Made by a program: the position numbers and the translations under genes. This document shows positions 1,366 through 24,271 of a stretch of DNA of 29,094 nucleotides, piece after piece. The DNA comes from a virus, in IMG/VR virus record IMGVR_UViG_3300035698_001363, positions 1 through 29,094 of that record. One strand, written 5' to 3'. The notes beneath the pieces are model-generated. The model was given only the letters and a program-made list of their open reading frames with translations, was not told the origin of the DNA and made no database searches. Each line of letters opens with the position of its first letter. Position 1 is the stretch's first letter.

Positions 1366-1887
1366 ATGAGAGAAATTAAATTCAGAGGAAAAAGAATAGA
1401 TAATGGAGAGTGGATTTATTCTTATAGTATTAGTCAGAATTTTGTTGAGACTGATAAAGGAATTATTAAAGCATCTATATATTTGGGAGATGGAGCAAAT
1501 GGACTAAGATTAGTAGACTCAAAAACTGTAGGACAATATACAGGACTTAAAGATAAGAATGGAGTAGAGATTTATGAGGGGGATATTGTTCAAGCTAAAT
1601 ATAATTATTGGTATAGAAGATATTGGAAAGATTTAGAAGATAAAAAAGAAATTGATAAAGATGTTTTGAAACAAAAGAAAAAAATAGAGAAAGAAAGTAA
1701 AACTATATCTTTTTCAAGAGGATGTTTTAAATGGGGAGTTCATACCTTAGATGAATTTTCACAAAATGATAGTCTTCAAGAACTTACAGAAAGAGGAGAA
1801 CAATATCCTGGAGAATGGGAAACTAAATGGTTTGAATTTAAAGTAATAGGAAATATCTACGAGAATAAAGATTTATTATCTGCATAG
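1366..1887 (+). CDS. YopX family protein
   Basis: The sequence follows the YopX pattern closely: N-terminal REIKFRGKRIDNGEWIY (residues 2-18), a central VDSKTVGQYTGLKDKNG, then EIYEGDIVQAKYN, and a C-terminal IGNIYEN strand. The family is widespread in phages of Firmicutes and others and adopts a beta-barrel of unknown function. At 173 residues it is somewhat longer than usual because of a charged Lys/Glu-rich insert at about residues 85-110. The stop codon lies inside the first copy of a 16-bp direct repeat (1881-1896 and 1901-1916). Confidence 0.88.
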   Translation: MREIKFRGKRIDNGEWIYSYSISQNFVETDKGIIKASIYLGDGANGLRLVDSKTVGQYTGLKDKNGVEIYEGDIVQAKYNYWYRRYWKDLEDKKEIDKDVLKQKKKIEKESKTISFSRGCFKWGVHTLDEFSQNDSLQELTERGEQYPGEWETKWFEFKVIGNIYENKDLLSA

Positions 1888-2327: not shown

Positions 2328-2340
2328 AAATTTAATTCAT

Positions 2341-2436
2341 GCCGAGATAGCTTAATTGGTAAAGCACTAATTTATCTGCAAGGATAGATACGACGCTAGC
2401 GCTAGGGATATGTGGGTTCGAGTCCCGCTCTCGGCA
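2341..2436 (+). tRNA. tRNA-like gene with enlarged central domain, isotype uncertain
   Basis: The acceptor stem is perfect: GCCGAGA (2341-2347) with TCTCGGC (2429-2435), followed by A73 and no encoded CCA. The D arm is GCTT-AATTGGTA-AAGC (2350-2365) and the T arm is GTGGG-TTCGAGT-CCCGC (2412-2428). The piece between D and T arms (2367-2411) is 45 nt, against about 22 nt in an ordinary class I tRNA. It can fold a 7-bp helix ATTTATC/GATAGAT (2370-2389) with loop TGCAAG, which would suggest anticodon GCA (Cys) or CAA (Leu), but the loop is not a standard seven-base loop. Downstream is a perfect palindrome CTAGCGCTAG (2396-2405). It may be degenerate, have an extra-long variable arm, or hold a small insert. 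Confidence 0.65.
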
Positions 2437-2449
2437 ATAAAACAAAAAT

Positions 2450-6240: not shown

Positions 6241-6422
6241 GCGAAAAAAGTGCAAAGAAAATAAGACAGATGTATAGAAAAGATGTCCAGAGAGAAGCTA
6301 AAGAAATGGCTGAGTTGATCGGTAATGCAATGAAGCCAAAACCGAAGTGGTGTCCTATGTGGCTTTGGATAAAGGGATGTTCAATTTTTATTAAGATAAA
6401 TAAGACGGGGGTAAAAAAATGA
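6237..6422 (+). CDS. hypothetical small protein, 61 aa
   Basis: The N-terminal half is a charged helix (SAKKIRQMYRKDVQREAKEM), and the C-terminal half has KPKPKWCPMWLWIKGCSIFI, a Pro/Trp segment leading to a short hydrophobic stretch that may touch the membrane. It overlaps by 4 bp with the gene on either side. The location immediately before a glycosyltransferase suggests it could help place the enzyme at the membrane, which is inference only. Confidence 0.6.
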   Translation: MSEKSAKKIRQMYRKDVQREAKEMAELIGNAMKPKPKWCPMWLWIKGCSIFIKINKTGVKK

Positions 6423-7072
6423 TTAGTATAATAGCAGTAGATTATCACAGTGAAGAGTTCAAAGATATATTAAAGGAATCAATAGAGAAAAATACTATTG
6501 GAGAGTATGAACTTTTAATACACGACAACGGTGGAAATAACATCGGACATGGACCGGGACTTGATGAGTTGGTTAAAAAAGCAAAAGGAGAATATATTTT
6601 AGTATTAGACATTGATTCTCATATTTTATTAAAGGGATGGGATCAAGAATTGATTAAACATTATAAATCACAAAGGGAATATGGATTAAGATTGATTGCA
6701 GGAGAGGGAGGACAATTAAAACCAATTAGACCATGCGTAGCTTTTTTTGAGAGAGATTATTTTTTAGGAAACAATATGTCATTTGTGTCAAGGAATGTAG
6801 ACGGAGCAAAATTTGACGTCGGCATTCTTTTTTATTTTCAAGTATTAAGTCAAGGTAGCAAGGTAGAATACTTTAAATATCAAAAATCAATATACGAGGA
6901 TGTGATCGGAAACAATTATAAGTTTAAAGATATTCCGTTTGTATTCCATCACTGGTATGGAACTAGATTCTATGCAGGAGATGGAAAGCATAAAGAACAA
7001 GTTGATAGTTTAACATTTGATAGATTTAATAAATCAAAACAATCATTAATAAAACAATACTATGGAAGATAA
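6419..7072 (+). CDS. GT-A fold glycosyltransferase, family 2-like
   Basis: The protein begins with the GT2 strand MISIIAVDYHSEEF and continues with ELLIHDNGGNNIG, where family 2 enzymes bind the nucleotide. GEYILVLDIDSHI (residues about 57-69) provides the D-x-D metal site (D64, D66). It is 217 residues, a minimal GT-A domain without membrane helices. Such enzymes transfer a sugar from a nucleotide-sugar donor. The start overlaps the previous gene by 4 bp and the end overlaps the LicD gene by 11 bp, so these two are made together. The acceptor could be a host glycan, phage DNA or a virion protein. Confidence 0.8.
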   Translation: MISIIAVDYHSEEFKDILKESIEKNTIGEYELLIHDNGGNNIGHGPGLDELVKKAKGEYILVLDIDSHILLKGWDQELIKHYKSQREYGLRLIAGEGGQLKPIRPCVAFFERDYFLGNNMSFVSRNVDGAKFDVGILFYFQVLSQGSKVEYFKYQKSIYEDVIGNNYKFKDIPFVFHHWYGTRFYAGDGKHKEQVDSLTFDRFNKSKQSLIKQYYGR

Positions 7073-7643
7073 ACAAAAAGAAAAGGATCAAGCATTTAGT
7101 AATTTACTTTTGTTTAAAGAGGTACTAGATAAATTTGAGATAGAGTTTTTATTAGATGGTGGAACTTTACTAGGAGCATATCGAGACAAAGACTTTTGTG
7201 AAGATGATCATGACGATGTGGATCTGACTACAATACATGAAACAGATCACGAATTGATACTAGATATAATGGAAGAAGCAGGAACTAAAGGTTTCGAGCT
7301 TTATCATTATTGGAAAAGGAATGATATAGCAAAAAATAATACAGGGCAGATATCATTTAAAAAGGATGATTTAAAGATTGATTTAATGTTTAAGGAACTA
7401 AAGAAAAAGAAAGCATGGTGGACTGTTTTTAAAGGAGCAGAGGTTATTTATAAATCAGTGCCATCAGGTTATTATTTAGAAACAAAAGAGATAGATTTTA
7501 AAGGTACTAAATTTTTAATACCTCAAGACGTAGAAGATTATTTAGAGTTAAGATATGGAGAATGGAAAAAACCAGTACATCGAAGAGAGTTCTCTTGTTT
7601 TACTAGCGATAATGTTATTGTAGAGAGTTATAATAAAATTTAA
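7062..7643 (+). CDS. LicD-family phosphotransferase
   Basis: The LicD/fukutin-type nucleotidyltransferase fold is clear: FLLDGGTLLGAYRDKDF (residues 29-45) holds the GG-x-LLG-x-R loop, and EDDHDDVDL (47-55) supplies the metal-binding acidic cluster. The C-terminus has LRYGEWKKP, the YG-x-W-x-x-P ending of LicD proteins. LicD enzymes transfer a phospho-alcohol (phosphocholine, ribitol phosphate or glycerol phosphate) from a CDP donor to a sugar. A matching CDP-alcohol-making enzyme is encoded at 7911, which supports that chemistry here. At 193 residues it is short but complete in its motifs. Confidence 0.82.
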   Translation: MEDKQKEKDQAFSNLLLFKEVLDKFEIEFLLDGGTLLGAYRDKDFCEDDHDDVDLTTIHETDHELILDIMEEAGTKGFELYHYWKRNDIAKNNTGQISFKKDDLKIDLMFKELKKKKAWWTVFKGAEVIYKSVPSGYYLETKEIDFKGTKFLIPQDVEDYLELRYGEWKKPVHRREFSCFTSDNVIVESYNKI

Positions 7644-7918: not shown

Positions 7919-8303
7919 ACAATATAAAAGAGGAATTACATTCGGAGCATTTGATCCATTGCATCATGGACATATTATGTTATTTATTAGAGCTAAGGAG
8001 ATGTGTGAAGAATTAATAGTTTGTGTTTCAGATGAAAAATATATTCAGAAGAACAAAGCCAGAGATGAAAGGTTTAGTTTAACAGAGAGAACCATGTCAC
8101 TAGGACAGATAAAGTGCATAGATAAATTTTGTGCCCAGACACCTAGCTTTGGTAAAAAGAAATTAGTAAAAATGTTCGAAGCAGATGTTATATTTGTAGG
8201 TAGTGACTGGAACAAGGATACATTTACAGGTGAGGGATTAGGAATACCTGTCGTTTATTTAGATAGGACAAAAGGAATATCATCAACTAAAATAAAACAA
8301 TGA
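7911..8303 (+). CDS. cytidylyltransferase, glycerol-3-phosphate type (TagD-like)
   Basis: This 130-residue protein matches the small TagD family in length. It has the nucleotide-binding GITFGAFDPLHHGHIML, with the H-x-G-H motif at 18-21, and the family's C-terminal ISSTKIK (residues 123-129). Such enzymes join CTP to glycerol 3-phosphate (or a similar phosphorylated alcohol or sugar) to give a CDP-alcohol. The LicD-like protein encoded 270 bp upstream would use that product. The RTEW/RYVD-type substrate signature of true TagD is not clearly present (DERFSLTERT instead), so the alcohol could differ. It overlaps the next glycosyltransferase by 4 bp. Confidence 0.82.
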   Translation: MDKQYKRGITFGAFDPLHHGHIMLFIRAKEMCEELIVCVSDEKYIQKNKARDERFSLTERTMSLGQIKCIDKFCAQTPSFGKKKLVKMFEADVIFVGSDWNKDTFTGEGLGIPVVYLDRTKGISSTKIKQ

Positions 8304-9208
8304 AAAACCTGACAGCATTAATGATCAGCTTCATGAGACCAGAATACACTAAAGAGTGTGTTAGATCGTTACGTGAATGTTATAAAGATATAAATATATT
8401 AGTTGCAGAGAACCATAACTTTAATAAAGATCTAAGAGATTTTGTTCATAAGCATGGTGGGAGATATGTTTTAATGCCATTTGACAGTGGCGTTTGTTTT
8501 GCTCGTAATAGATTAATGGACATAGCAGATACAGAATTAGTCTTAATCGGTGATGATGATTTTTATTATAACAAAGACGCTAAGGTAGATCGGATGGTTA
8601 AGTTCATGAATATACATAAACAGTTCTCATTATTAGGTGGTAGGATATTCGAGAGAAGCAGAGTGTTAGATTATCAGGGGATCATAAATATATACCCGGA
8701 TCATTTTCATTATGTACCGTTAGACTTCGAAGAAAATAAAAAATGTAAAAGAAGTGGTTTGTCTTATCAACAGGCAGATATAACGTTTAACTATTTTGTG
8801 GCCAGAAGAAAAGAAATTATAGGAGTCAGATGGGATGAGAGAATCAAGGTGGCATACGAACATAGTGATTGGTTTATATCATTGAAGAAAGCAGGAGGTA
8901 GAAAGGTGGCATTCACTCCTGAAGCTATCGTAATTCATAAACCAATGCATGTAGCATTGAGTAAACAAAAAAAAGAAGAATACGGCCATTTTAGAAACAG
9001 GAGAGCAGACATGCATTACTTCTTTGCTAAACACAAAGTTAAATACTCCATAGGATTTAGAGGGATGAGAACTAACTTCGATGAGATTAAAGAGCTAAAG
9101 CATAAGTATTATGCAAAGATAGCGATGACATATGATGGTAGAAATTATAATCAGGGAGATGTAATTAATACAGACATGCCAAATGAATGGATGGAACCTT
9201 GTTATTAA
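8300..9208 (+). CDS. GT-A glycosyltransferase, B4GALNT/GT12-like
   Basis: The first 200 residues are a GT-A domain: ALMISFMRPEYTKECVRSL at the start, GVCFARNRLMDIA (64-76) and the metal site LIGDDDFYY (D85-D87). Farther on, VRWDERIKVAYEHSDWFISLKKAG (about 176-199) has the WD...EH catalytic-base arrangement seen in beta-1,4-N-acetylgalactosaminyltransferases and related GT12/GT2 enzymes. A His-Lys-Pro-Met-His segment and a C-terminal KYYAKIAMTYDGRNYNQGD region follow, the last resembling a small beta module. It may add a second sugar after the enzyme at 6419. Donor and acceptor remain unknown. Confidence 0.8.
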   Translation: MKNLTALMISFMRPEYTKECVRSLRECYKDINILVAENHNFNKDLRDFVHKHGGRYVLMPFDSGVCFARNRLMDIADTELVLIGDDDFYYNKDAKVDRMVKFMNIHKQFSLLGGRIFERSRVLDYQGIINIYPDHFHYVPLDFEENKKCKRSGLSYQQADITFNYFVARRKEIIGVRWDERIKVAYEHSDWFISLKKAGGRKVAFTPEAIVIHKPMHVALSKQKKEEYGHFRNRRADMHYFFAKHKVKYSIGFRGMRTNFDEIKELKHKYYAKIAMTYDGRNYNQGDVINTDMPNEWMEPCY

Positions 9209-9218
9209 TATAAAAAAT

Positions 9219-10496
9219 ATGAAATTAGAATGGAAAAATGAGAAAAGAAAAGTAAAAGATTTAATCCCGGCCGATTATAATCCAAGATTTTTGGATGAAA
9301 AAAGCCGTAAAGATTTAGAAGAATCAATAAAAGAATTTGATACTGTCGTTCCGGTTGTTATAAATATAGGAACTAGAAAAAATGTTTTGATCGGAGGACA
9401 CCAAAGAATCACTATCTATGCGGATTTAAAAATTGAAGAGATAGACGTTAGAGTGCCGAATAGAGAATTAAATATCGAAGAAGAAACTAAATTGAATTTA
9501 AGACTTAATAAAAACGTGGGAGATTGGGATTGGGATAAATTAAAGGATATTGAAATGGATAAATTGTTAGAGGTTGGATTTGGAGATGAAGAACTTTCTG
9601 ATATGTGGGATGACGTTGAAACATTTGAAGATGAGTTCGACGTAGAGAAACAAATAAAGGAAGCATTAACAACAAATGTAAAGCCAGGGGATATTTATGA
9701 GTTAGGTAATCATCGTTTAATGTGTGGAGACTCAATAGATTTAGAACAGGTTAAAAAATTAATGGCCGGGAAAAAGGCAGACATGATTTATTGTGATCCG
9801 CCTTATAATATAGGTTTAGATTATTCAAAAGGAATATCAACCAAAGGAAAGTATGGAGGGAAATATAGTAGTAATGATGATAATAAAAAGGATGATGATT
9901 ATGATATATTTATTTTAAAAACAATAGAGAACGTTAAAGAGTTTGTTAAAGAAGATGCACATTTTTTTTATTGGTGTGATGAAAAATATATTGGAATGAT
10001 ACAAAGGATCTATGAAGAACTAGAGATATCAAACAAAAGGGTTTGCATGTGGATTAAAAATAATTTTAACATGACTCCTCAGATAGCATTTAATAAAGCG
10101 TATGAATCATGTGTTTATGGAACGATAGGAAAACCATTTTTGAGTAAGAACATAATGAATTTGAATGAAGTGATGAACAAAGAGGTGGGAGTAGGTAACC
10201 AGACGATAAGTGATATTATTGATATATTTAATATATGGTTAGTTAAGAGAGATAACGTCTTAGAATATAAACATCCGACACAAAAACCAGTGACACTTCA
10301 CGAGAAACCACTGAGAAGATGTACAGCACCGGGAAATATAGTCGTTGATTTATTTGGAGGTTCAGGAAGTACGTTAATCGCTTGTCAGCAGTTAGGAAGA
10401 TTTTGTTACATGATGGAAATGGATCCAATTTTTAGCCAAGTTATAATAGATAGATATGAACAATCAACAGGAAAAAAAGCCAGAAAAATTAATTAA
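9219..10496 (+). CDS. ParB-like domain fused to a DNA methyltransferase
   Basis: Starting at ATG 9219, the first 100 residues are a ParB/Srx domain: DLIPADYNPRFLDEKS and VLIGGHQRITIYADL (GGHQR at 59-63). After an acidic linker comes a beta-class amino-methyltransferase: GDIYELGNHRLMCGDS (158-172), catalytic DPPYN (193-197), a central target-recognition part, and the SAM loop DLFGGSGSTLIA near the C-terminus (about 377-388). It should methylate adenine N6 or cytosine N4. The ATG at 9183 lies inside the upstream gene and is less likely. No restriction enzyme is adjacent, so it is probably an orphan methylase protecting phage DNA or guiding replication/packaging. Confidence 0.85.
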   Translation: MKLEWKNEKRKVKDLIPADYNPRFLDEKSRKDLEESIKEFDTVVPVVINIGTRKNVLIGGHQRITIYADLKIEEIDVRVPNRELNIEEETKLNLRLNKNVGDWDWDKLKDIEMDKLLEVGFGDEELSDMWDDVETFEDEFDVEKQIKEALTTNVKPGDIYELGNHRLMCGDSIDLEQVKKLMAGKKADMIYCDPPYNIGLDYSKGISTKGKYGGKYSSNDDNKKDDDYDIFILKTIENVKEFVKEDAHFFYWCDEKYIGMIQRIYEELEISNKRVCMWIKNNFNMTPQIAFNKAYESCVYGTIGKPFLSKNIMNLNEVMNKEVGVGNQTISDIIDIFNIWLVKRDNVLEYKHPTQKPVTLHEKPLRRCTAPGNIVVDLFGGSGSTLIACQQLGRFCYMMEMDPIFSQVIIDRYEQSTGKKARKIN

Positions 10497-10740
10497 GACA
10501 GGGGATATTTATCAGTTGGGAGATCACAGATTATTATGTGGTAACGCTTCTGATGTTCCAGAGAGATTATTTGATTCAAAGGTTAGGATGATATGTACAG
10601 ATCCTCCGTATGGAGTGGCATACGTAGAGAATAAAAAGCATTTGAATAAAACAATTGGATCTAACATAGCATGCGAAAACATTAAGAGCAGGAATGAAAA
10701 TGGCAGGTTGGTATTATTCACAGATGATAATTTGGATTAA
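10456..10740 (+). pseudogene. broken second DNA methyltransferase, 5' fragment
   Basis: This frame begins inside the preceding gene (41-bp overlap) and encodes LIKTGDIYQLGDHRLLCGNASD followed by the catalytic TDPPYGVAYVEN (about residues 49-60), the same order as in the upstream methylase but without a ParB domain. It then runs off into unrelated residues and stops at 10740. The C-terminal half of the enzyme is in another frame (10694-11104). About 40-50 residues normally found between DPPYG and the SQ-x-IIW-x-KN strand are missing, so a deletion not divisible by three is likely, with the junction near 10640-10690. Confidence 0.75.
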
Positions 10741-11104
10741 GAATACCATAGTAATGGGTAGAAAAGATTATTTGCCACAGCACGAACTTATAGCCTACGG
10801 TTGGATGGGCCGACACAAAATGGAGAGAGCAAAGAGTAGGACTGTTATTTTTCATGCAAAACCTCACAGATCAGCGTTACATCCTACAATGAAACCAGTG
10901 GCATTATTAAGAAAGCTAATTCTAAACAGTACAAAGACTGGTCAAACAGTTTATGATCCGTTTGGAGGTAGTGGATCAACATTGATAGCTTGTGAACATA
11001 CAAAACGAAAGTGTATAATGGTAGAGATGGAACCAAGTTATTGTGAAGTTATTATTAAAAGATGGGAGAAGCTAGTGGGTAAAGAAGCCAAAAAGGTGGT
11101 ATAA
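10694..11104 (+). pseudogene. broken second DNA methyltransferase, 3' fragment
   Basis: This frame holds the rest of the methylase: GWYYSQMIIWIKNTIVMGR, DYLPQHELIAYGWMG, HPTMKPVALLRKLI and the SAM loop YDPFGGSGSTLIACEHT. Homology-like sequence continues upstream of the ATG at 10694 (HAKTLRAG) back to a TAG at 10667-10669, so it is the tail of a once-longer frame shifted by +1 relative to the 5' fragment. Without the catalytic DPPY in the same chain it should be inactive, unless made as a two-piece enzyme or by frameshifting. A sequencing or assembly error could explain a frame change, but not easily the missing block. Confidence 0.75.
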
Positions 11105-16195: not shown

Positions 16196-17557
16196 ATGAA
16201 TATAGCAAAATTGATAGCCAAGTTTATGAAAATTGGCTATAAGAAACTATCAGATTCAGAACAGAAATTATTGGGAGACAATGTTAGTTTAATGTCAGTA
16301 GGTCAAAAATCAAAATGGGATAAATTAGAGAAAAAGAGAAACTCTAAAAAATCAGTAAAGAATGATGACGAGTTTGACGAAAAAGCATTGAAAGCTATGA
16401 TTTCAGATAGTGTTCAAGATGAAATTTCAGAAAAGATGGATCAAGTAGCTGACAAGTTAGTAAAGAAATTTTTTAAGAACGCTAAGGTAAGCAGAAAGAA
16501 AGCTATTGATACTGGTAAAAGAAGTAATAGCAAAGCAAATAATGAAACTAGAGACTTTTTGAAAGCATTGATTAGCAATGATACTGTTAAACTGGTTGAG
16601 TTAGAAAAAAAGACTACTACTTATAATCAGACTGGCGACGACGCTAGAGGTGGTTACACAGTACCAGAAGAATTAATGAACGAGGTATTAAGAATCGCTG
16701 AAAAGCAATATGGTTTAGCTCGAAGAGATTTCAGATATTTGCCATTTAGTGGACCGGGTAATGAACGAAAGATCCCAACATTGGCAAGTTCAGTATCAGT
16801 AACATGGGTAAACGAAGCAGGAGCAAAGACAAGTTCAAATCCTACTTTCGGATTAGTTACTCAAACATTAAAGAAATTGGCCGCTATTATTCCTTTCACA
16901 GAAGAAATTATCGAAGATTCACTTATCAACTTGACTCAGTTAGTAGCAGAATTATTCGCTGAGGCAGTAGCTAAGGAAGAAGATGTACAGTTCTTTTATG
17001 GAACAGGATCACCTTGGACTGGTATTCTAAATAACGGTTCAGTGGTTGTAGTAGCATTAGCAACAGGAGAGGGAGTTTCAGATATTAGTTTTGAGAAATT
17101 AGTAGATATGCAAGACGCATGTCCATCAGGTGCTTTGGCAGGGGCTAAGTATTATATGAATAGAACAATTTTCAGTTATCTTAGAAAACTTAGAACTGAC
17201 GCAGTAAGTGCAGCAGACAGTAAAGGTGCATTTTTACTACCGCCAACTAAAACATCTCTTGAAGATATTTTAGGATTTCCTATTGAATTATCAGACGCTT
17301 TCCCAGATAAGACTTTGACTGGGGCATCTAAACCATTCGTTGTATTTGCCAACTTAAAGATTGCCGCAATTTTCGGAGATAAACAACAGATCAGAGCCAA
17401 GCTTTTAGATCAAGCAACTATCACAGATGGAGACGGAACAACAACTATTAATCTTGCAGAGCAAGATATGATCGCATTGCGATTAGAGGAAAGAGTAGGA
17501 TACGTTCTAGCTCTTCCAAGCGCAGTAGTAGTATTAAAAACTGGTGCAGCTTCATAG
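16196..17557 (+). CDS. major capsid protein, HK97 fold
   Basis: Residues 1 to about 140 are a charged helical region typical of the HK97 scaffold-like delta domain. The capsid fold begins near NQTGDDARGGYTVPEELMNEVLRI (about 143-166), followed by the strand region RKIPTLASSVSVTWVNEAGA, TLKKLAAIIPFTEEIIEDS and the VAKEEDVQFFYGTGSPWTGIL segment. The order is the standard phage_capsid family. The prohead protease encoded just upstream would remove the delta domain, probably near residues 130-145. The gene starts after an A/T-only leader 9 bp past the protease stop, and a large hairpin follows its end. Confidence 0.94.
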   Translation: MNIAKLIAKFMKIGYKKLSDSEQKLLGDNVSLMSVGQKSKWDKLEKKRNSKKSVKNDDEFDEKALKAMISDSVQDEISEKMDQVADKLVKKFFKNAKVSRKKAIDTGKRSNSKANNETRDFLKALISNDTVKLVELEKKTTTYNQTGDDARGGYTVPEELMNEVLRIAEKQYGLARRDFRYLPFSGPGNERKIPTLASSVSVTWVNEAGAKTSSNPTFGLVTQTLKKLAAIIPFTEEIIEDSLINLTQLVAELFAEAVAKEEDVQFFYGTGSPWTGILNNGSVVVVALATGEGVSDISFEKLVDMQDACPSGALAGAKYYMNRTIFSYLRKLRTDAVSAADSKGAFLLPPTKTSLEDILGFPIELSDAFPDKTLTGASKPFVVFANLKIAAIFGDKQQIRAKLLDQATITDGDGTTTINLAEQDMIALRLEERVGYVLALPSAVVVLKTGAAS

Positions 17558-18373: not shown

Positions 18374-18409
18374 TTAATAATAAGCAATACAATGCTGAAA
18401 ACCGAGCAA

Positions 18410-18448
18410 TATAATGCAAAGATTACCGCTCGGGAAACCAGCGGTAAT
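18410..18448 (+). promoter_or_regulatory. -10 box plus 5' hairpin with CTCGGGAAACCA loop (copy 2)
   Basis: TATAAT at 18410-18415 predicts a start at about 18422, the first base of the stem ATTACCGC (18422-18429), which pairs perfectly with GCGGTAAT (18441-18448). The loop TCGGGAAACCA shares the 12-mer CTCGGGAAACCA with copy 1. A T-rich run (TTTAATTTT) follows, so the hairpin could also end transcription. Upstream CCGAGC (18402-18407) is complementary to GCTCGG (18428-18433), an alternative pairing that would break the stem. Confidence 0.5.
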
Positions 18449-18457
18449 TTTAATTTT

Positions 18458-18877
18458 ATGAAAACAACAAAGTACAATTTTACAAACAATAAGGGGGAAA
18501 AAGAAGAAGTCGATATAGTTGACTGGATTTGGGCAGTGGTTTATAAAGACGGCAAGGAATTGAAGCAGTATGATTCTAAAGGATTATTTCATCAGTTTCA
18601 GGAAATAGATCAAGATAATGTCAAACTCTTTATAATGTTAAACGTAGAGACAGGCAAGAGATTTGACATAGTTAAGACAGAAGATATGCAGATATTTCAT
18701 TTTTATAGAAATTGCGGAACTATAGACGGAGAAAACAGAAAAGAAAAGAGAGCATTTGTATTTGGATATAAGAATAGAAAAACTAAAAAGACAGCGTATC
18801 ATTATATTTTACCAAACGACACACTGCTAATATCGGAAGAAGATATTAGTTTAGTACCATATGGGATGTTTAATTAA
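18458..18877 (+). CDS. hypothetical protein, 139 aa
   Basis: I place the start at ATG 18458 (MKTTKYNFTNNKG), directly after the hairpin. The longer frame from ATG 18392 would translate the hairpin and a pair of near-identical 12-mers (GCAATACAATGC at 18384, GCAATATAATGC at 18406), which looks like leader rather than coding. The protein is mixed alpha/beta, with many charged and aromatic residues (WIWAVVYKDGKELKQYD, RAFVFGYKNRKTKKTAYHYILPND), and no signal or membrane segment. No family is recognised. It may be a regulator or accessory virion protein given its separate leader. Confidence 0.6.
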   Translation: MKTTKYNFTNNKGEKEEVDIVDWIWAVVYKDGKELKQYDSKGLFHQFQEIDQDNVKLFIMLNVETGKRFDIVKTEDMQIFHFYRNCGTIDGENRKEKRAFVFGYKNRKTKKTAYHYILPNDTLLISEEDISLVPYGMFN

Positions 18878-18892
18878 TTAATATAAAAACAT

Positions 18893-19666
18893 ATGGCAGA
18901 CGCAAAAATAACAGCGTTAGACGCTAAAACAACACCTGTAGACGCAGATGTTTTACCATTAGTAGATTCTACAGGGCCAACAACAAAAAAAGTAACATGG
19001 GCAAATATCAAAGCAACATTGAAAGCTTATTTTGATACTTTATATTCAATAGCAGTAAAAGCAACAGGAGCAGAACTAACAACAGGAACTGATGATGCTA
19101 AGTTTGCTACAGCTAAAGCGATTAAAGACTCTCATAATGTACCAAGTGTATTACCTAGCACAGCAGGGAAAGTTTTAACTTCTGATGGAACTGATTGGAT
19201 AAGTGCTGATCCAGCTGCTAGTGGAGGATTACCAGCAGGTGCTATAGTACCTTATGGTGGGTCAAGTGCTCCAGATGGATATTTATTATGTAATGACCAA
19301 GCAGTTTCTAGAACTACTTATTCAGATTTATTCACTGCAATAAGTACAAGCTATGGAGTAGGAGATGGTTCTACTACATTTAATGTTCCAGATTTAAGAG
19401 GAAATGTTCCAGTAGGTAAAGATTCTAGTACATTTAGTACTCTTGGAGCTACTGGTGGAGCAGAAACACATACATTGTCAACTGCAGAATTAGCTGCTCA
19501 TAGTCACGATATAGATGGTACTACGAATGAAGGTGGAGTTGGAAATCATGTAGATGTTGGAAGTAATGCATTAAGTCAGACTGCTTCAACAAAATCGGCT
19601 GGTAGTGGAAGTGCTCATAATAATATACAACCATATCAAGTGGTAAATTATATTATTAAGACTTAA
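18893..19666 (+). CDS. collar-domain fibre/receptor-binding protein
   Basis: The N-terminus (ADAKITALDAKTTPVDADVLPLVD, TKKVTWANIKATL) is a common attachment module of phage fibres. The C-terminal half has the phage tail collar domain: GAIVPYGGSSAPDGYLLCNDQAVSRT, YGVGDGSTTFNVPDLRGNVPVGKD, ELAAHSHDI and finally AHNNIQPYQVVNYIIKT. Such domains form trimeric tips that bind receptors, as in Mtd and T4 gp12. The unusual point is location: between capsid genes and connectors instead of after the tail tip gene. It may be a capsid fibre or a relocated tail fibre. Confidence 0.85.
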   Translation: MADAKITALDAKTTPVDADVLPLVDSTGPTTKKVTWANIKATLKAYFDTLYSIAVKATGAELTTGTDDAKFATAKAIKDSHNVPSVLPSTAGKVLTSDGTDWISADPAASGGLPAGAIVPYGGSSAPDGYLLCNDQAVSRTTYSDLFTAISTSYGVGDGSTTFNVPDLRGNVPVGKDSSTFSTLGATGGAETHTLSTAELAAHSHDIDGTTNEGGVGNHVDVGSNALSQTASTKSAGSGSAHNNIQPYQVVNYIIKT

Positions 19667-19685: not shown

Positions 19686-21434
19686 ATGGCAGATTATTTA
19701 GTACAAGAAACTGAAGATAAAATACTTCAAGAAAATGATGATGGTATTTTATTAGAACAACAAACTCCTGCACCAGTAGGAATTGAAAAAGGTTTAGCAT
19801 ACAAAATAATAACTTCTGATGACATAGAAAAAGGATTAGTCTATGAAGTGGCATCGACGGTAAGCATTGAAAAAGTTTTAGCTTATACAGTTCTAACACA
19901 GGTAGGAGTTGAAAAGGCTTTAGCATATAAGATCAAAGCTACTCCGTCGAGTATTGAAAAAGCTTTAGATTATAAAGTTATAACATCAACTGATACAGAA
20001 AAGGTTTTAGCATATACAATAAGACCATCAACAGACGTAGATAAAGCCTTGGCATACGAGATCATAGCACCAGTAGCAATAGAGAAAGGTTTGCAATATA
20101 CAATTATTTATACTCCATCGGACATAACTAAAGGATTAATTTATAGTGTAATAACTACACCGTCAGCAACTGAAAAAGGATTAGCATACGAAGTTAGAAG
20201 CAATACTGACATAGAGAAAGGACTTCTTTATAAAGTTAGAGGTCAAGTAGATATTAATAAGGCATTAAGTTATACAGTTGAGACAACACCAGCAAGTATT
20301 ACTAAAAGTCTAGCGTATACTGTTTTAACTGTGCCTACGTCAATAGAAAAAGGATTAGATTATTTTTTAGTAGTAGTAACAGATATTGAAAAGGCATTGA
20401 GTTATGAAGTTAAAAGTCAGGTAGATATAAATAAAGGATTAGTATATGCAGTTAAACCATCAATAGATATAAATAAGACACTGCAATATACAGTGATAAC
20501 TGATACGGATATTAATAAAGGATTAGTTTATGGAATTATGATCCCGGCCGATATTAATAAAGGTTTAGATTATAAAGTATTGACTGACAATGATATTGAG
20601 AAAGGATTAATTTACAGAGTGTTAACAAATACTGATGTAGAAAAAGGTTTATCATATGTAGTTGGATATAAAATCGATATTAGTAAAGGTTTAGTTTATA
20701 CAATAAAATCACCAGTAGATGTTAACAAGGATTTACAGTACACAATTTTAACAGTACCTACATCAATTGAAAAGGGATTAGAATATAGAGTAAGACCATC
20801 AACTGACACCGAAAAAGGATTAGATTATACTGTACTAACTGTTCCATCTGGTATTGAAAAATCATTAGAGTATGAAGTGATCACAATTTTAGATATTAGT
20901 AAAGGACTACAATATACAGTTATAACTAATATAGACATTAACAAAGGGTTAGATTATTTTATATTGACAGACATAGATATTAATAAAGGACTTGATTATT
21001 GCATAATTACAGACACAGATATTAATAAAGGTTTGAGTTACGAAATAATTACTGAATTAGATATCAGCAAAGGATTAGATTATGAGATCAAGAACGTTCT
21101 CGACATAACAAAAGGATTAGATTATTATTTATTATTCGTCAATGATGTCAGTAAAGGGTTAGATTATTTAGTAATAACTGATACTAGCATACAAAAGCAA
21201 TTACAATACACAATTTACAACGTGAGAGAAGTTACTAAGCAACTTGACTATTTAGTCACATTAACTAAATCAATTCAAAAAACGAGCGAATATGAGGTAA
21301 TAACTAGCAGTGGGATAGAAAAGTCTTTAGATTATGAGGTATTGTCAGAGATGGAGATCACGAAGGCAATGGTTTATCAATTACAAATAAATCCTTATAG
21401 TAAAAAGGATAGTCCATATTCTAATTTTAAATAA
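19686..21434 (+). CDS. 582-aa protein of 38 tandem 14-residue repeats
   Basis: After a 32-residue head (MADYLVQETEDKILQENDDG..., similar to short LLQENGD-type beta motifs of phage virion proteins), residues 33-571 are 38 consecutive units of consensus I-x-K-G-L-x-Y-x-V-x-x-x-x-D. Thirty-one units have 14 residues and seven have 15, always with an added residue at a T/V-P-x turn; an 11-residue tail ends the protein. Alternating hydrophobic Leu, Tyr and Val argue for a beta-solenoid or stacked hairpins. The gene follows the collar-domain gene by 19 bp and precedes the connector promoter. It is probably an elongated virion fibre or capsid spike; function is inference and I know no family with this repeat. 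Confidence 0.8.
   Translation: MADYLVQETEDKILQENDDGILLEQQTPAPVGIEKGLAYKIITSDDIEKGLVYEVASTVSIEKVLAYTVLTQVGVEKALAYKIKATPSSIEKALDYKVITSTDTEKVLAYTIRPSTDVDKALAYEIIAPVAIEKGLQYTIIYTPSDITKGLIYSVITTPSATEKGLAYEVRSNTDIEKGLLYKVRGQVDINKALSYTVETTPASITKSLAYTVLTVPTSIEKGLDYFLVVVTDIEKALSYEVKSQVDINKGLVYAVKPSIDINKTLQYTVITDTDINKGLVYGIMIPADINKGLDYKVLTDNDIEKGLIYRVLTNTDVEKGLSYVVGYKIDISKGLVYTIKSPVDVNKDLQYTILTVPTSIEKGLEYRVRPSTDTEKGLDYTVLTVPSGIEKSLEYEVITILDISKGLQYTVITNIDINKGLDYFILTDIDINKGLDYCIITDTDINKGLSYEIITELDISKGLDYEIKNVLDITKGLDYYLLFVNDVSKGLDYLVITDTSIQKQLQYTIYNVREVTKQLDYLVTLTKSIQKTSEYEVITSSGIEKSLDYEVLSEMEITKAMVYQLQINPYSKKDSPYSNFK
19782..21398 (+). repeat. 42-bp coding repeat array, 38 units
   Basis: The repeat region of the preceding entry: 42-bp units (45 bp in seven cases). 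Third codon positions differ widely between units, so the array is old and maintained at protein level, while neighbouring units in the second half (for example ATTAATAAAGG-containing ones near 20500-21040) are more alike and suggest later local duplications. There are no spacers, so this is not a CRISPR array. Confidence 0.85.
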
Positions 21435-21460: not shown

Positions 21461-22036
21461 ATGAAAGGATATACATCAAAACAAGCAGTGGAGAATTATA
21501 CTCTCCAAACAATAGATTCATCATTTGATACTCAGATACAATCGTGGATCGAGTCTATAGAAAAGTTTATAGACCAGAGAACTGGCCGGAATTTTGTCGC
21601 AGACGCATCAAATACAGAAAAAGTGTATGATGGTAACGGAAAAATAGAATTGATTATAGATGACTTTATGTCTATAACAAAGCTAGAAATAGGAGAAGAT
21701 ACTAAAACAGAAATAGATTCAGATGATTATAGGATCTATCCGAACAATGATACTCCTAAAAGGAAGCTACAATTAAAAGATGGCTATTTTACTACTGGAC
21801 ATCAGAACGTAACTGTCACAGGTAAATTTGGTTATTCGACAGCATGCCCGGCAGATGTTACTTTAGCGGCCACAGTGTTAGTAGCAGGAGTAACAGGATA
21901 CGCAGATGATACCAAAGGAAAGGTCAGAAGTGAAAGCATCGGTAGATTCACAGTTGCATATCAGACAGAACAAGGATGGGAAGATTTCAGAAATGCTATA
22001 ATGATTTTAGATTCTTATAAGAAATACCACTTTTAA
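21461..22036 (+). CDS. head-tail connector / adaptor protein
   Basis: The protein has the gp6-like adaptor pattern: an N-terminal helix pair (DTQIQSWIESIEKFIDQRTGRNF, about 24-46), a beta middle (YDGNGKIELIIDDFMSITKLEIG, DYRIYPN), then helices with CPADVTLAATVLVAGVTGYA and a C-terminal AIMILDSYKKYHF. These proteins form a ring below the portal. At 191 residues it is longer than the minimal 100-residue HK97 gp6 and resembles the longer adaptors. The next gene starts one base after its stop, as is usual in connector operons. Confidence 0.78.
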   Translation: MKGYTSKQAVENYTLQTIDSSFDTQIQSWIESIEKFIDQRTGRNFVADASNTEKVYDGNGKIELIIDDFMSITKLEIGEDTKTEIDSDDYRIYPNNDTPKRKLQLKDGYFTTGHQNVTVTGKFGYSTACPADVTLAATVLVAGVTGYADDTKGKVRSESIGRFTVAYQTEQGWEDFRNAIMILDSYKKYHF

Positions 22037-22037
22037 T

Positions 22038-22358
22038 ATGTCAATACAAACTTATTATAATAAGAGTGTGACGGTTAACAGATTAGTTCCAATAGAAGTA
22101 GGTAGTAATAAAAAAGATTATGTAAGTAACATAACAAACCTAGCATGTCAGATTCAACCGTTAGATCCAAGCATTACTCAGAACGCTAGTGCTTTTGGTA
22201 AAGACAAATTAATGTTTTGCTCGGTAGTTGATATAGTAGAGGGAGATCGAGTTGTAGATGGATCAGATACTTATGAAGTAGCAGGTGTAGAAGTTTATGA
22301 TGATTTATCTCAGGCATCAGATCACATGGAAATTATACTAAGAATTTTTAAATCATAA
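22038..22358 (+). CDS. head closure / stopper protein
   Basis: A 106-residue beta protein starting SIQTYYNKSVTVNRLVPIE and ending GDRVVDGSDTYEVAGVEVYDD...HMEIILRIFK, the shape and size of phage head-tail joining stoppers (SPP1 gp16, HK97 gp7 type). It closes the channel after packaging and gives the docking face for the tail. Its stop overlaps the next ATG by one base (TAATG). Confidence 0.75.
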   Translation: MSIQTYYNKSVTVNRLVPIEVGSNKKDYVSNITNLACQIQPLDPSITQNASAFGKDKLMFCSVVDIVEGDRVVDGSDTYEVAGVEVYDDLSQASDHMEIILRIFKS

Positions 22359-22804
22359 TGATTACAATAAGGATTAATAATTTAAAAGATATAGAGTTAG
22401 CATTTAAACAAGTACCTTTAAAATTAGCAACCAACCTGAATAAAGCGATCAATAGAATAATAAAGAAAGTAGAGAGCAGTGCTAAAAAGGAAGCTCCAGT
22501 AAACAAACAATCAGGTGGTGGTAATTTAAGACAGAGCATCACTTCAAGGATGACAAGTCCGACTGGTGGTTTAGTAAATGTTGGAGCAAAGTATGCAACT
22601 TTTGTGCATGAGGGTACAAGACCTCATATAATTAGAATAAAAAATAAAAGGGTATTGGCAAATAAAAGGAGTGGGAGAGTATTCGGAACAGTAGTGAAAC
22701 ATCCAGGAACGAGGGCCAATCCATTTTTACAAAGAGCAGTAGACAAGGAGCAAGCATTTATAGATAGTGAATTTAAAAAGGCTGTAGAAAGATCAATAAA
22801 ATAA
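22358..22804 (+). CDS. HK97 gp10-like neck/tail-completion protein
   Basis: Typical features of the HK97 gp10 family are an N-terminal helical stretch (LKDIELAFKQVPLKLATNLNKA), the motif SAKKEAPVNKQSGGGNLRQSI at about 47-67, VGAKYATFVHEGTRPHII (about 76-93), and HPGTRANPFLQRAV (about 116-129). The family joins tail to head or completes the tail end. It lies in the conserved order adaptor, stopper, gp10-like, terminator. Confidence 0.85.
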   Translation: MITIRINNLKDIELAFKQVPLKLATNLNKAINRIIKKVESSAKKEAPVNKQSGGGNLRQSITSRMTSPTGGLVNVGAKYATFVHEGTRPHIIRIKNKRVLANKRSGRVFGTVVKHPGTRANPFLQRAVDKEQAFIDSEFKKAVERSIK

Positions 22805-22808
22805 ATAT

Positions 22809-23231
22809 ATGACATCAAATTTTAAAGAAATAAGAGCGGCGATCGTAGCCAAACTTTTAGAGTTAGATACGGTGCAAGAGAGTTGGGGATATGATAAAAG
22901 TATATTTGATGGATTTCCTGCATTGGTTGTAGTGCCTAGTGATAATGAAGCAGACTACGGATCGACAGATAAAGATAGAATAGTATTCAATTTTAAACTA
23001 AGAGCATATTATATTGTAAAAAATGAGAGTGAGATGTCAGCAGGAGAAACAGCATTGGAAGAAGTAGTAGATGAAATTTTAAATACATTCAGAAAGAGAA
23101 ATGTTCTAGGATCAGTATGTGACTGGGTAGATCCTGCTCCAAGTATTTGGGAGTATGAAACCAGAGGAGATGCGGTCTATAGAACAGCAGAGGTAAGTTT
23201 AAGATGTGTCAAGTATATATCAAAAACATAA
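22809..23231 (+). CDS. tail terminator protein
   Basis: A 140-residue alpha/beta protein with N-terminal helix (NFKEIRAAIVAKLLELDTV), strands PALVVVPSDN and RIVFNFKLRAYYIV, a long helix (ETALEEVVDEILNTFRKR) and a last strand YRTAEVSLRCVKYI. Size, fold pattern and place just before the tail tube gene fit the tail terminator, which caps the tube and sets its finished length together with the tape measure. No highly specific motif was found, so the call relies on pattern and order. Confidence 0.72.
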   Translation: MTSNFKEIRAAIVAKLLELDTVQESWGYDKSIFDGFPALVVVPSDNEADYGSTDKDRIVFNFKLRAYYIVKNESEMSAGETALEEVVDEILNTFRKRNVLGSVCDWVDPAPSIWEYETRGDAVYRTAEVSLRCVKYISKT

Positions 23232-23236
23232 AAATG

Positions 23237-23245
23237 TGCTATAAT
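23237..23245 (+). promoter_or_regulatory. extended -10 promoter TGCTATAAT before tail tube gene
   Basis: TGCTATAAT is 33 bases before ATG 23279, so the transcript would have a leader of about 27 nt made of A/T-rich sequence without Shine-Dalgarno. It gives extra transcription to the abundant tail tube gene. Confidence 0.6.
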
Positions 23246-23278
23246 AAAAGTACAGATTAAATAATTAATAATAAAATT

Positions 23279-24271
23279 ATGAGTTTACTAAAAGGAGAAG
23301 ATATAAACTTAGGAGTTGGTATCGAATCAACAAGGGGTATAGCAGTAAGTCCTCAAGGTTGGATTCCTGCTAGATCTCCAAGTGGAGTCACAGTAGAGGT
23401 TTTAAAAGCCTTAATTAAAGAGACAAAGGCATCAAATATGTCTAGTCAAGGTTCGGAAGTAGTACAGAGAAAAGCTATCGGAGATTTAGAATTTAACGTT
23501 AGAGCAGAAATGATCGGTTATATTCTAAAAAGTTTATTAGGAAAATGTACAACTGCATCAGTTTACGGTACAGTGAACGATCATACGTTTGAAATTTTAG
23601 GTAACAATCCTCAATTTCCAACTCTAGCGTTAGGTTTATCACAACCAAACTTACAGGATTACGTTTATAATGGAGTGCTAGTTAATTCATTAGAATTGAA
23701 AACACCAGTAGAAGATCTAGTAAATGCTACTATTAATTTTGAAGGTAGAGATGAAACAGAGATAGTAGATTATATTCCATCATTTAACAGCACAGATTAT
23801 TTATTCAGACCATGGGAAATAACAATTAAACTAGCAACAAATCTAGCAGGGCTAGCGGCTGCCGAAGCAATAGACATGAAAGAATTTAGTTTGAATATAA
23901 AGAATAACGGTAAGACACAACAGAACATTGGAACTATAACACCAACAGATGTGATTGCAGGTTTATTAGATATCGAGGGTAGTTTAGTAATTGATTATGA
24001 GGGAGATACATATCACGACCTTTATAAAGATGGTGCATACAGAGCAATGCAGATACAGATGGCAAGAGCAGATGTTGATCTAGGTGGTGGATATAATCCA
24101 ACAATCACAATTCAATTAGCAAAGGTATCATTCGAGAGTTCAAAACCAGATAGACCACTAGACGATATAGTAAAAGATGCTCTTGAGTTCAAAGCTCATT
24201 ATTCAGATACAGATTCAGAAGCAATAAATGTAGTAGTTAGAAACACAGTAGCAAGTTACGTTACTGCATAA
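23279..24271 (+). CDS. major tail tube protein
   Basis: At 330 residues it matches the larger tail tube family: the N-terminal VGIESTRGIAVSPQGWIPARS, central IGDLEFNVRAEMIGYILKSLLG, YVYNGVLVNSLELKTPVEDLVNATINFEGRD (about 140-170), and SLNIKNNGKTQQNIGTITPTDV. The strand-rich, hydrophilic make-up fits stacked hexamer rings. It has a promoter of its own, as expected for a high-copy protein. No Ig-like add-on domain is seen at the C-terminus. Confidence 0.82.
   Translation: MSLLKGEDINLGVGIESTRGIAVSPQGWIPARSPSGVTVEVLKALIKETKASNMSSQGSEVVQRKAIGDLEFNVRAEMIGYILKSLLGKCTTASVYGTVNDHTFEILGNNPQFPTLALGLSQPNLQDYVYNGVLVNSLELKTPVEDLVNATINFEGRDETEIVDYIPSFNSTDYLFRPWEITIKLATNLAGLAAAEAIDMKEFSLNIKNNGKTQQNIGTITPTDVIAGLLDIEGSLVIDYEGDTYHDLYKDGAYRAMQIQMARADVDLGGGYNPTITIQLAKVSFESSKPDRPLDDIVKDALEFKAHYSDTDSEAINVVVRNTVASYVTA

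What the first reader, a model, noticed from the sequence alone, without database searches (positions are those of the whole stretch)
19686..21434. Virion protein made of 38 tandem 14-residue units, with no family I recognise
Sequence shows 38 consecutive units of I-x-K-G-L-x-Y-x-V-x(4)-D filling residues 33-571; 31 are 14 long and 7 are 15 long with the extra residue always at a Pro turn. Lengths add up exactly (32+539+11=582). Alternating Leu/Tyr/Val suggests a beta-solenoid or stacked hairpin rod. It sits between a collar-domain protein and the connector genes, so it may be a capsid spike or fibre shaft.
Basis: partly seen in the sequence, partly recalled or inferred. Interest (0 to 1): 0.78.

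Follow-up and report, generated by a model that had tools for sequence, protein, structure and literature searches.

The report
Repeat-built phage fibre shaft, new family
An uncultivated tailed phage encodes a protein built almost entirely of 38 near-identical 14-residue strands; dozens of related phages carry the same kind of protein, with different strand counts or quite different repeats, in the same gene slot, so it looks like an interchangeable, length-adjustable fibre shaft.

Summary
ORF 19686-21434 encodes 582 aa with 38 units of I-x-K-G-L-x-Y-x-V (31 of 14 residues, 7 of 15); K3 and Y7 are invariant. No library family or solved structure covers the repeat, and no isolated phage, plasmid or sampled cellular genome was found to carry it. 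It is not unique: a pattern scan and a repeat-blind survey of the neighbouring head-tail adaptor gene found about 37 distinct phage lineages with the same arrays (17-73 units), just upstream of the adaptor. The last residues, (Y/N)PYxxKxSPYxx(F/L), are a conserved C-terminal tail. The same tail caps quite different tandem repeats (18-residue SDTGxGxEAL, 14-residue NSERxIELxGK) in the same slot of sister phages, and several members add N-terminal lectin-like domains. Streptomyces phage Hiyaa gp13 has the same slot, an N-terminal module shared with one member, and its own 20-residue repeats. Closely related phages differ by loss of whole units. Best explanation: an exchangeable, length-variable shaft of a virion fibre encoded in the head/neck block, anchored by its C-terminus (virion location and anchoring inferred). 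AlphaFold2 confidence is low to moderate, so solenoid versus trimeric shaft is open. New variant of a known kind.

The parts
19686..21434 (+). ORF of the repeat protein, 582 aa
19686..19781 (+). N-terminal segment, residues 1-32, with the motif LVQExxDKILQENxxxILLEQ; a similar motif ends a 288-aa protein in five other phage contigs
19782..21389 (+). Tandem array, residues 33-568: 37 full units of I-x-K-G-L-x-Y-x-V-x(5-6) plus a last strand
21390..21431 (+). Conserved C-terminal tail NPYSKKDSPYSNFK, residues 569-582; shared with slot proteins whose repeats are of other kinds
18893..19666 (+). Upstream neighbour: fibre-like protein with phage tail Collar domain (PF07484, E 6.9e-22)
18392..18877 (+). 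Conserved 161-aa protein marking the left side of the slot in relatives; no family
16196..17557 (+). Major capsid protein (HK97-type, PF05065)
21461..22036 (+). Downstream neighbour: head-tail adaptor (phrog_442), used for the repeat-blind survey
22038..24271 (+). Remaining connector and tail genes: stopper, neck, tail terminator, tail tube

Best explanation
The protein is the shaft of a virion appendage (fibre or filament) encoded in the head/neck gene block of an uncultivated siphovirus group. Each 14-residue unit supplies one amphipathic beta-strand plus a 4-5 residue turn, so unit number sets shaft length. The conserved C-terminal PY tail is the part that docks on the particle or on an assembly partner, and the free N-terminal side carries an adhesive module where there is one (Laminin_G_3 or other lectin-like domains in relatives; only a short LLQE-type motif here, possibly with the adjacent collar-domain protein as tip). 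The shaft is exchangeable: unrelated short repeats are swapped in front of the same tail, and unit blocks are lost by recombination between units. Shown: array, slot, shared tail, variable N-termini, unit-block variation. Inferred: virion location, C-terminal anchoring, beta shaft, adhesion.
For: Strict synteny: in relatives the array gene lies between the post-capsid genes and the head-tail adaptor. Repeat-blind survey with the adaptor: of 54 lineages with an upstream ORF, about 35 carry this array, 11 an 18-residue and 3 a 14-residue array of other sequence, and only 2 have an unrelated ORF (motif-count classes, rough). A tail HMM built only from this array type hits the C-termini of the other array types (E 1e-7 to 2e-2) and almost nothing else among 7682 ORFs. 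N-terminal Laminin_G_3 domains in three members. Streptomyces phages Hiyaa, Keanu and Galactica have the same slot; their protein shares its N-terminal module with member L013 (tblastn E 2e-46, 99% of query) and Hiyaa's has 20-residue repeats. 17-73 units in members with complete 5' ends. L036 retains units 1, 22-27 and 36-51 of L008's array. A regular strand per unit is predicted.
Against: No virion proteomics or image exists for this group. 'Minor tail protein' is only an annotator's name in Hiyaa. The window's own protein has no recognisable binding domain. AF2 confidence is low, and AF2 is known to favour beta-solenoids for repeats (PMC11795689). Phage fibres usually anchor by the N-terminus (own knowledge), so C-terminal anchoring would be unusual.
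Confidence: 0.6

Rival explanations
1. It is a tail fibre or minor tail protein that works at the tail tip, and its place beside the capsid genes is only an accident of gene order.
For: The 18-residue repeats that replace it in sister phages resemble repeats in mycobacteriophage proteins annotated as minor tail proteins and encoded with the tail genes. The Collar domain next door is typical of tail fibres.
Against: The slot is constant beside capsid and connector genes across the whole group and in Hiyaavirus, away from the tape measure and the genes after it.
Confidence: 0.22
2. It is a capsid decoration protein whose main job is to stabilise or coat the shell rather than to reach the host.
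For: Position just after the major capsid protein and conserved small genes.
Against: Large length variation (17-73 units), repeat-type swapping and lectin-like fusions do not fit a lattice-matched cement protein.
Confidence: 0.08
3. It is not a virion part: a secreted or host-surface repeat protein (a cargo gene) expressed late.
For: No sign of virion location other than synteny; repeat proteins of this kind can be bacterial adhesins.
Against: A repeat protein is present in nearly every member in one slot inside the morphogenesis block; no copy was found elsewhere in six longer contigs; no array was found in 84,980 species genomes with the strict pattern; and its N-terminal motif recurs in a structural-region protein of other phages.
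Confidence: 0.06

Closest known systems
Streptomyces phage Hiyaa gp13 and Hiyaavirus homologues (annotated minor tail or hypothetical protein)
   Same: Same slot immediately before the head-to-tail adaptor; N-terminal module homologous to member L013; body of short tandem repeats
   Different: Repeats are 20 residues long with another consensus; no PY tail; capsid and adaptor proteins not detectably related to the window's
DTGTGTD-type repeats of mycobacteriophage and Rhodococcus phage proteins (phiT45-1 gp23, Madraxi gp8, REQ1 Orf64)
   Same: Short repeats in phage structural-region proteins; resemble the type B arrays that replace this array in sister phages
   Different: Different repeat sequence and period; located with tail genes or before the terminase
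Adenovirus triple beta-spiral fibre shaft (15-residue repeats; own knowledge)
   Same: Short repeats of near-constant length, Pro or Gly at turns, unit number sets shaft length
   Different: No sequence hit; here one contiguous strand per unit with invariant K and Y
Capsid fibres and decoration proteins that aid host contact (phi29 gp8.5, T4 Hoc, SPP1 gp12: PMC7602432; phage 7-7-1 capsid fibres: PMC12796354)
   Same: Proposed role: elongated, head-associated, host contact
   Different: None is known to be built of this repeat; phi29 gp8.5 is alpha-helical, Hoc Ig-like, SPP1 gp12 collagen-like; the structure of the 7-7-1 fibre is still unknown

Membership tests
Any curated family in Pfam, NCBIfam or PHROGs | Profile match over the array with a significant stretch and above curated cut-off | tested here: not met
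   only scattered scores without a passing stretch, or below cut-off
Any repeat family with a solved structure | Sequence or profile hit in the PDB | tested here: not met
   none at E up to 1
Hiyaa gp13-type slot protein | Gene directly upstream of the head-tail adaptor in the head block | tested here: met
Hiyaa gp13-type slot protein | Homologous N-terminal lectin-like module | tested here: not met
   Present in member L013, absent from the window protein
Hiyaa gp13-type slot protein | Body of short tandem repeats | tested here: met
   (periods 14 and 20)
Beta-solenoid | Coiled beta fold with one or more strands per repeat | tested here: inconclusive
   Regular strands, pLDDT 50.6 and 69.6, only two of five models at or above 65; no significant fold match
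Triple beta-spiral or other trimeric shaft | Homotrimer with interlocked strands | not testable with these tools
   Only monomer prediction available
Phage capsid/neck fibre | Present in virions, attached to head or neck | not testable with these tools
   No proteomics or imaging for this group

The most novel reading that the evidence does not exclude
A widespread group of uncultivated siphoviruses has a dedicated 'shaft slot' at the head-neck gene boundary in which unrelated short tandem repeats are exchanged in front of one conserved C-terminal docking tail, and in which shaft length is tuned by recombination between units: a modular capsid or neck filament class not described before.
Probability: 0.45. 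Interest if true: 0.7.

Novelty: new variant of a known kind. Interest (0 to 1): 0.58.

Why it matters
It identifies an unrecognised repeat family (about 37 lineages in the contigs seen here) and a gene slot where phages swap whole shaft types while keeping an end tail. That gives a testable model of how phages tune the reach of an adhesive appendage, and the 38 diverged units with two invariant residues are a good target for finding a new minimal beta shaft. Cultured Hiyaavirus phages give an accessible test bed.

Tried and rejected
Pfam, PHROG and PDB scores for the array had no passing stretch and were not used. tblastn of three array proteins against isolated phages and of one against plasmids: no match (BLAST's low-complexity filter may mask part of the query). 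The strict pattern hit 33 bacterial/archaeal contigs, none with an array. Host search with the adaptor profile in 10, 398 and 296 genomes gave nothing or only weak general adaptor hits. Foldseek matches are all above E 0.001 and were not used. Considered and rejected: chance low-complexity ORF; recent DNA duplication or assembly artefact (units 54% identical, relatives in many samples). Literature searches for the slot or for repeat-number variation found nothing, nor did one for Hiyaa or for the type B motif.

Full report
OBSERVATION. ORF 19686-21434 translates to 582 residues. Parsing gives 38 units from residue 33, of 14 (31 units) or 15 (7 units) residues; position 3 is K in 38/38, position 7 Y in 38/38, position 5 L in 36/38, position 9 V/I/L in 38/38. 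All seven 15-mers have a Pro at position 13. The two-unit DNA pattern matches 12 times here and never in shuffles; autocorrelation at lag 14 is 0.383 against at most 0.13 in shuffles. Units share 54% DNA identity on average, with little excess between neighbours, and mixed synonymous codons at K, L and Y: an old array held by protein-level selection.

CONTEXT. The window is a 29,094-base virus record. Gene order is that of a siphovirus head-tail block: small and large terminase, portal with a MuF-like end, protease, major capsid protein, three small genes, collar-domain protein, the array, head-tail adaptor, stopper, neck, tail terminator, tail tube, tape measure. The array itself matches no Pfam, PHROG or NCBIfam family with a significant stretch and no PDB sequence. 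No isolated phage or plasmid record matched the array proteins tried.

RELATIVES. A two-unit pattern scan of IMG/VR returned 38 stretches, most of them with real arrays. phmmer with the window's own proteins showed the same slot wherever the contig was long enough: capsid, two or three small conserved genes, sometimes a collar protein, array gene, adaptor. To avoid ascertainment by the repeat, I searched with an adaptor profile (A1) and got 80 loci. Of the 54 adaptor lineages (95% clusters) with an upstream ORF, about 35 have this array, 11 an array of an 18-residue unit (LSDTGxGxEALxILxxIA), 3 a 14-residue unit of other sequence (NSERxIELxGKxx), one a further repeat type (L118), two show only the tail at a contig edge or in a short ORF, and two have an unrelated ORF. 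The classes come from motif counts and are approximate. Periods were confirmed by autocorrelation in six of the other-type proteins.

TAIL AND N-TERMINI. Slot proteins end in a PY tail, roughly (Y/N/S)PYxxKx(S/T)PYxx(F/L/M). An HMM built from tails of this array type alone hits the ends of proteins with the other repeat types (E 1.6e-7 to 1.6e-2, database size set to 10,000) and, among 7682 ORFs, almost only slot proteins. N-termini vary: the short LLQE-type motif as in the window, Laminin_G_3 domains (L042, L043, L044), and a module in L013 that is homologous over 99% of its length to Streptomyces phage Hiyaa gp13. Hiyaa gp13 lies directly upstream of the head-to-tail adaptor, after the capsid gene, and its second half is made of 20-residue repeats; Keanu and Galactica have the same gene order. 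Capsid and adaptor proteins of Hiyaa were not detectably related to the window's by single-sequence search, nor the adaptor by profile, so the shared slot is either old or convergent.

LENGTH VARIATION. Members with a complete 5' end have 17 to 73 units. Between two related contigs, L036 keeps units 1, 22-27 and 36-51 of L008, with hybrid units and 17-48 base overlaps at the junctions; L028 lacks units 12-15. L039 has flanking stretches 96-97% identical to L008 but an array at about 80-85% with rearranged units. Assembly error is not excluded, but the units are too diverged to collapse easily.

STRUCTURE. AlphaFold2 on the whole protein gave pLDDT 50.6 and pTM 0.40. On the last 13 units plus tail, with a better alignment (A4), it gave 69.6 and 0.61: in each unit a 7-residue strand at positions 5-11 and a bridge at position 1. 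Only two of the five models scored 65 or more. Foldseek found nothing significant. [quoted passage not shown] here even that bias did not give high confidence, which is compatible with an obligate oligomer but does not show one.

INTERPRETATION. A gene that is nearly always present, sits in the morphogenesis block, keeps its end tail, varies in length by whole units, swaps its repeat type and acquires lectin-like N-terminal domains is best read as an exchangeable shaft of a virion fibre or filament, docked by the C-terminus. The location beside capsid and connector genes favours head or neck over tail tip, but type B repeats also occur in mycobacteriophage proteins annotated as minor tail proteins, so the tail is not excluded. 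Virion presence, anchoring and adhesion are inferences. Comparable head-associated appendages that aid host contact are known in other phages (PMC7602432; PMC12796354) but are built differently.

NOVELTY. The repeat family is undescribed in the libraries searched. The function class, phage fibre or appendage shaft, is known. I rate it a new variant of a known kind; the swap-in shaft slot is the more novel part.

Noticed in passing
window 57-28698, 37 gene starts checked: None of 37 gene starts has an AGGA/GGAG/GAGG motif upstream; starts are preceded by A/T-rich sequence. Suggests a host that does not rely on Shine-Dalgarno leaders (Bacteroidota would fit)..
   Followed up: partly
window 6419-7643: Neighbouring glycosyltransferase-2 and LicD-family genes, as if the phage modifies a surface sugar.
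   Followed up: no
window 9183-10496 and 10694-11104: A ParB-like/DNA methyltransferase gene is followed by a short ORF matching the same C-terminal part of the methyltransferase profile, a possible partial duplication.
   Followed up: no
window 2340-2437: Phage-encoded tRNA-Gln (ctg).
   Followed up: no
window 1366-1887: YopX-family gene; 62 bases are 87% identical to Staphylococcus aureus phage YopX genes, while nothing else in bases 1-25000 matches known phages by megablast.
   Followed up: no
L002-L006, e.g. L002:4212-5078: The N-terminal motif of the array protein (LxQExxDKILQENxxxILLEQ) is the C-terminal end of a 288-aa protein in other phage contigs; a motif shared between structural-region proteins.
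   Followed up: partly
L007:7757-8206 and 8210-11014 (also L034): Two array proteins in tandem in one slot, each with its own PY tail.
   Followed up: no
L142, slot ORF of 801 aa: Slot filled by a protein whose sequence looks (by eye) like a right-handed beta-helix; a nearby ORF carries the LLQEN motif.
   Followed up: no
L162 (phiCbK 77272-78360): The N-terminal module of L013 also resembles a phiCbK hypothetical protein encoded between tail genes and the endolysin.
   Followed up: no
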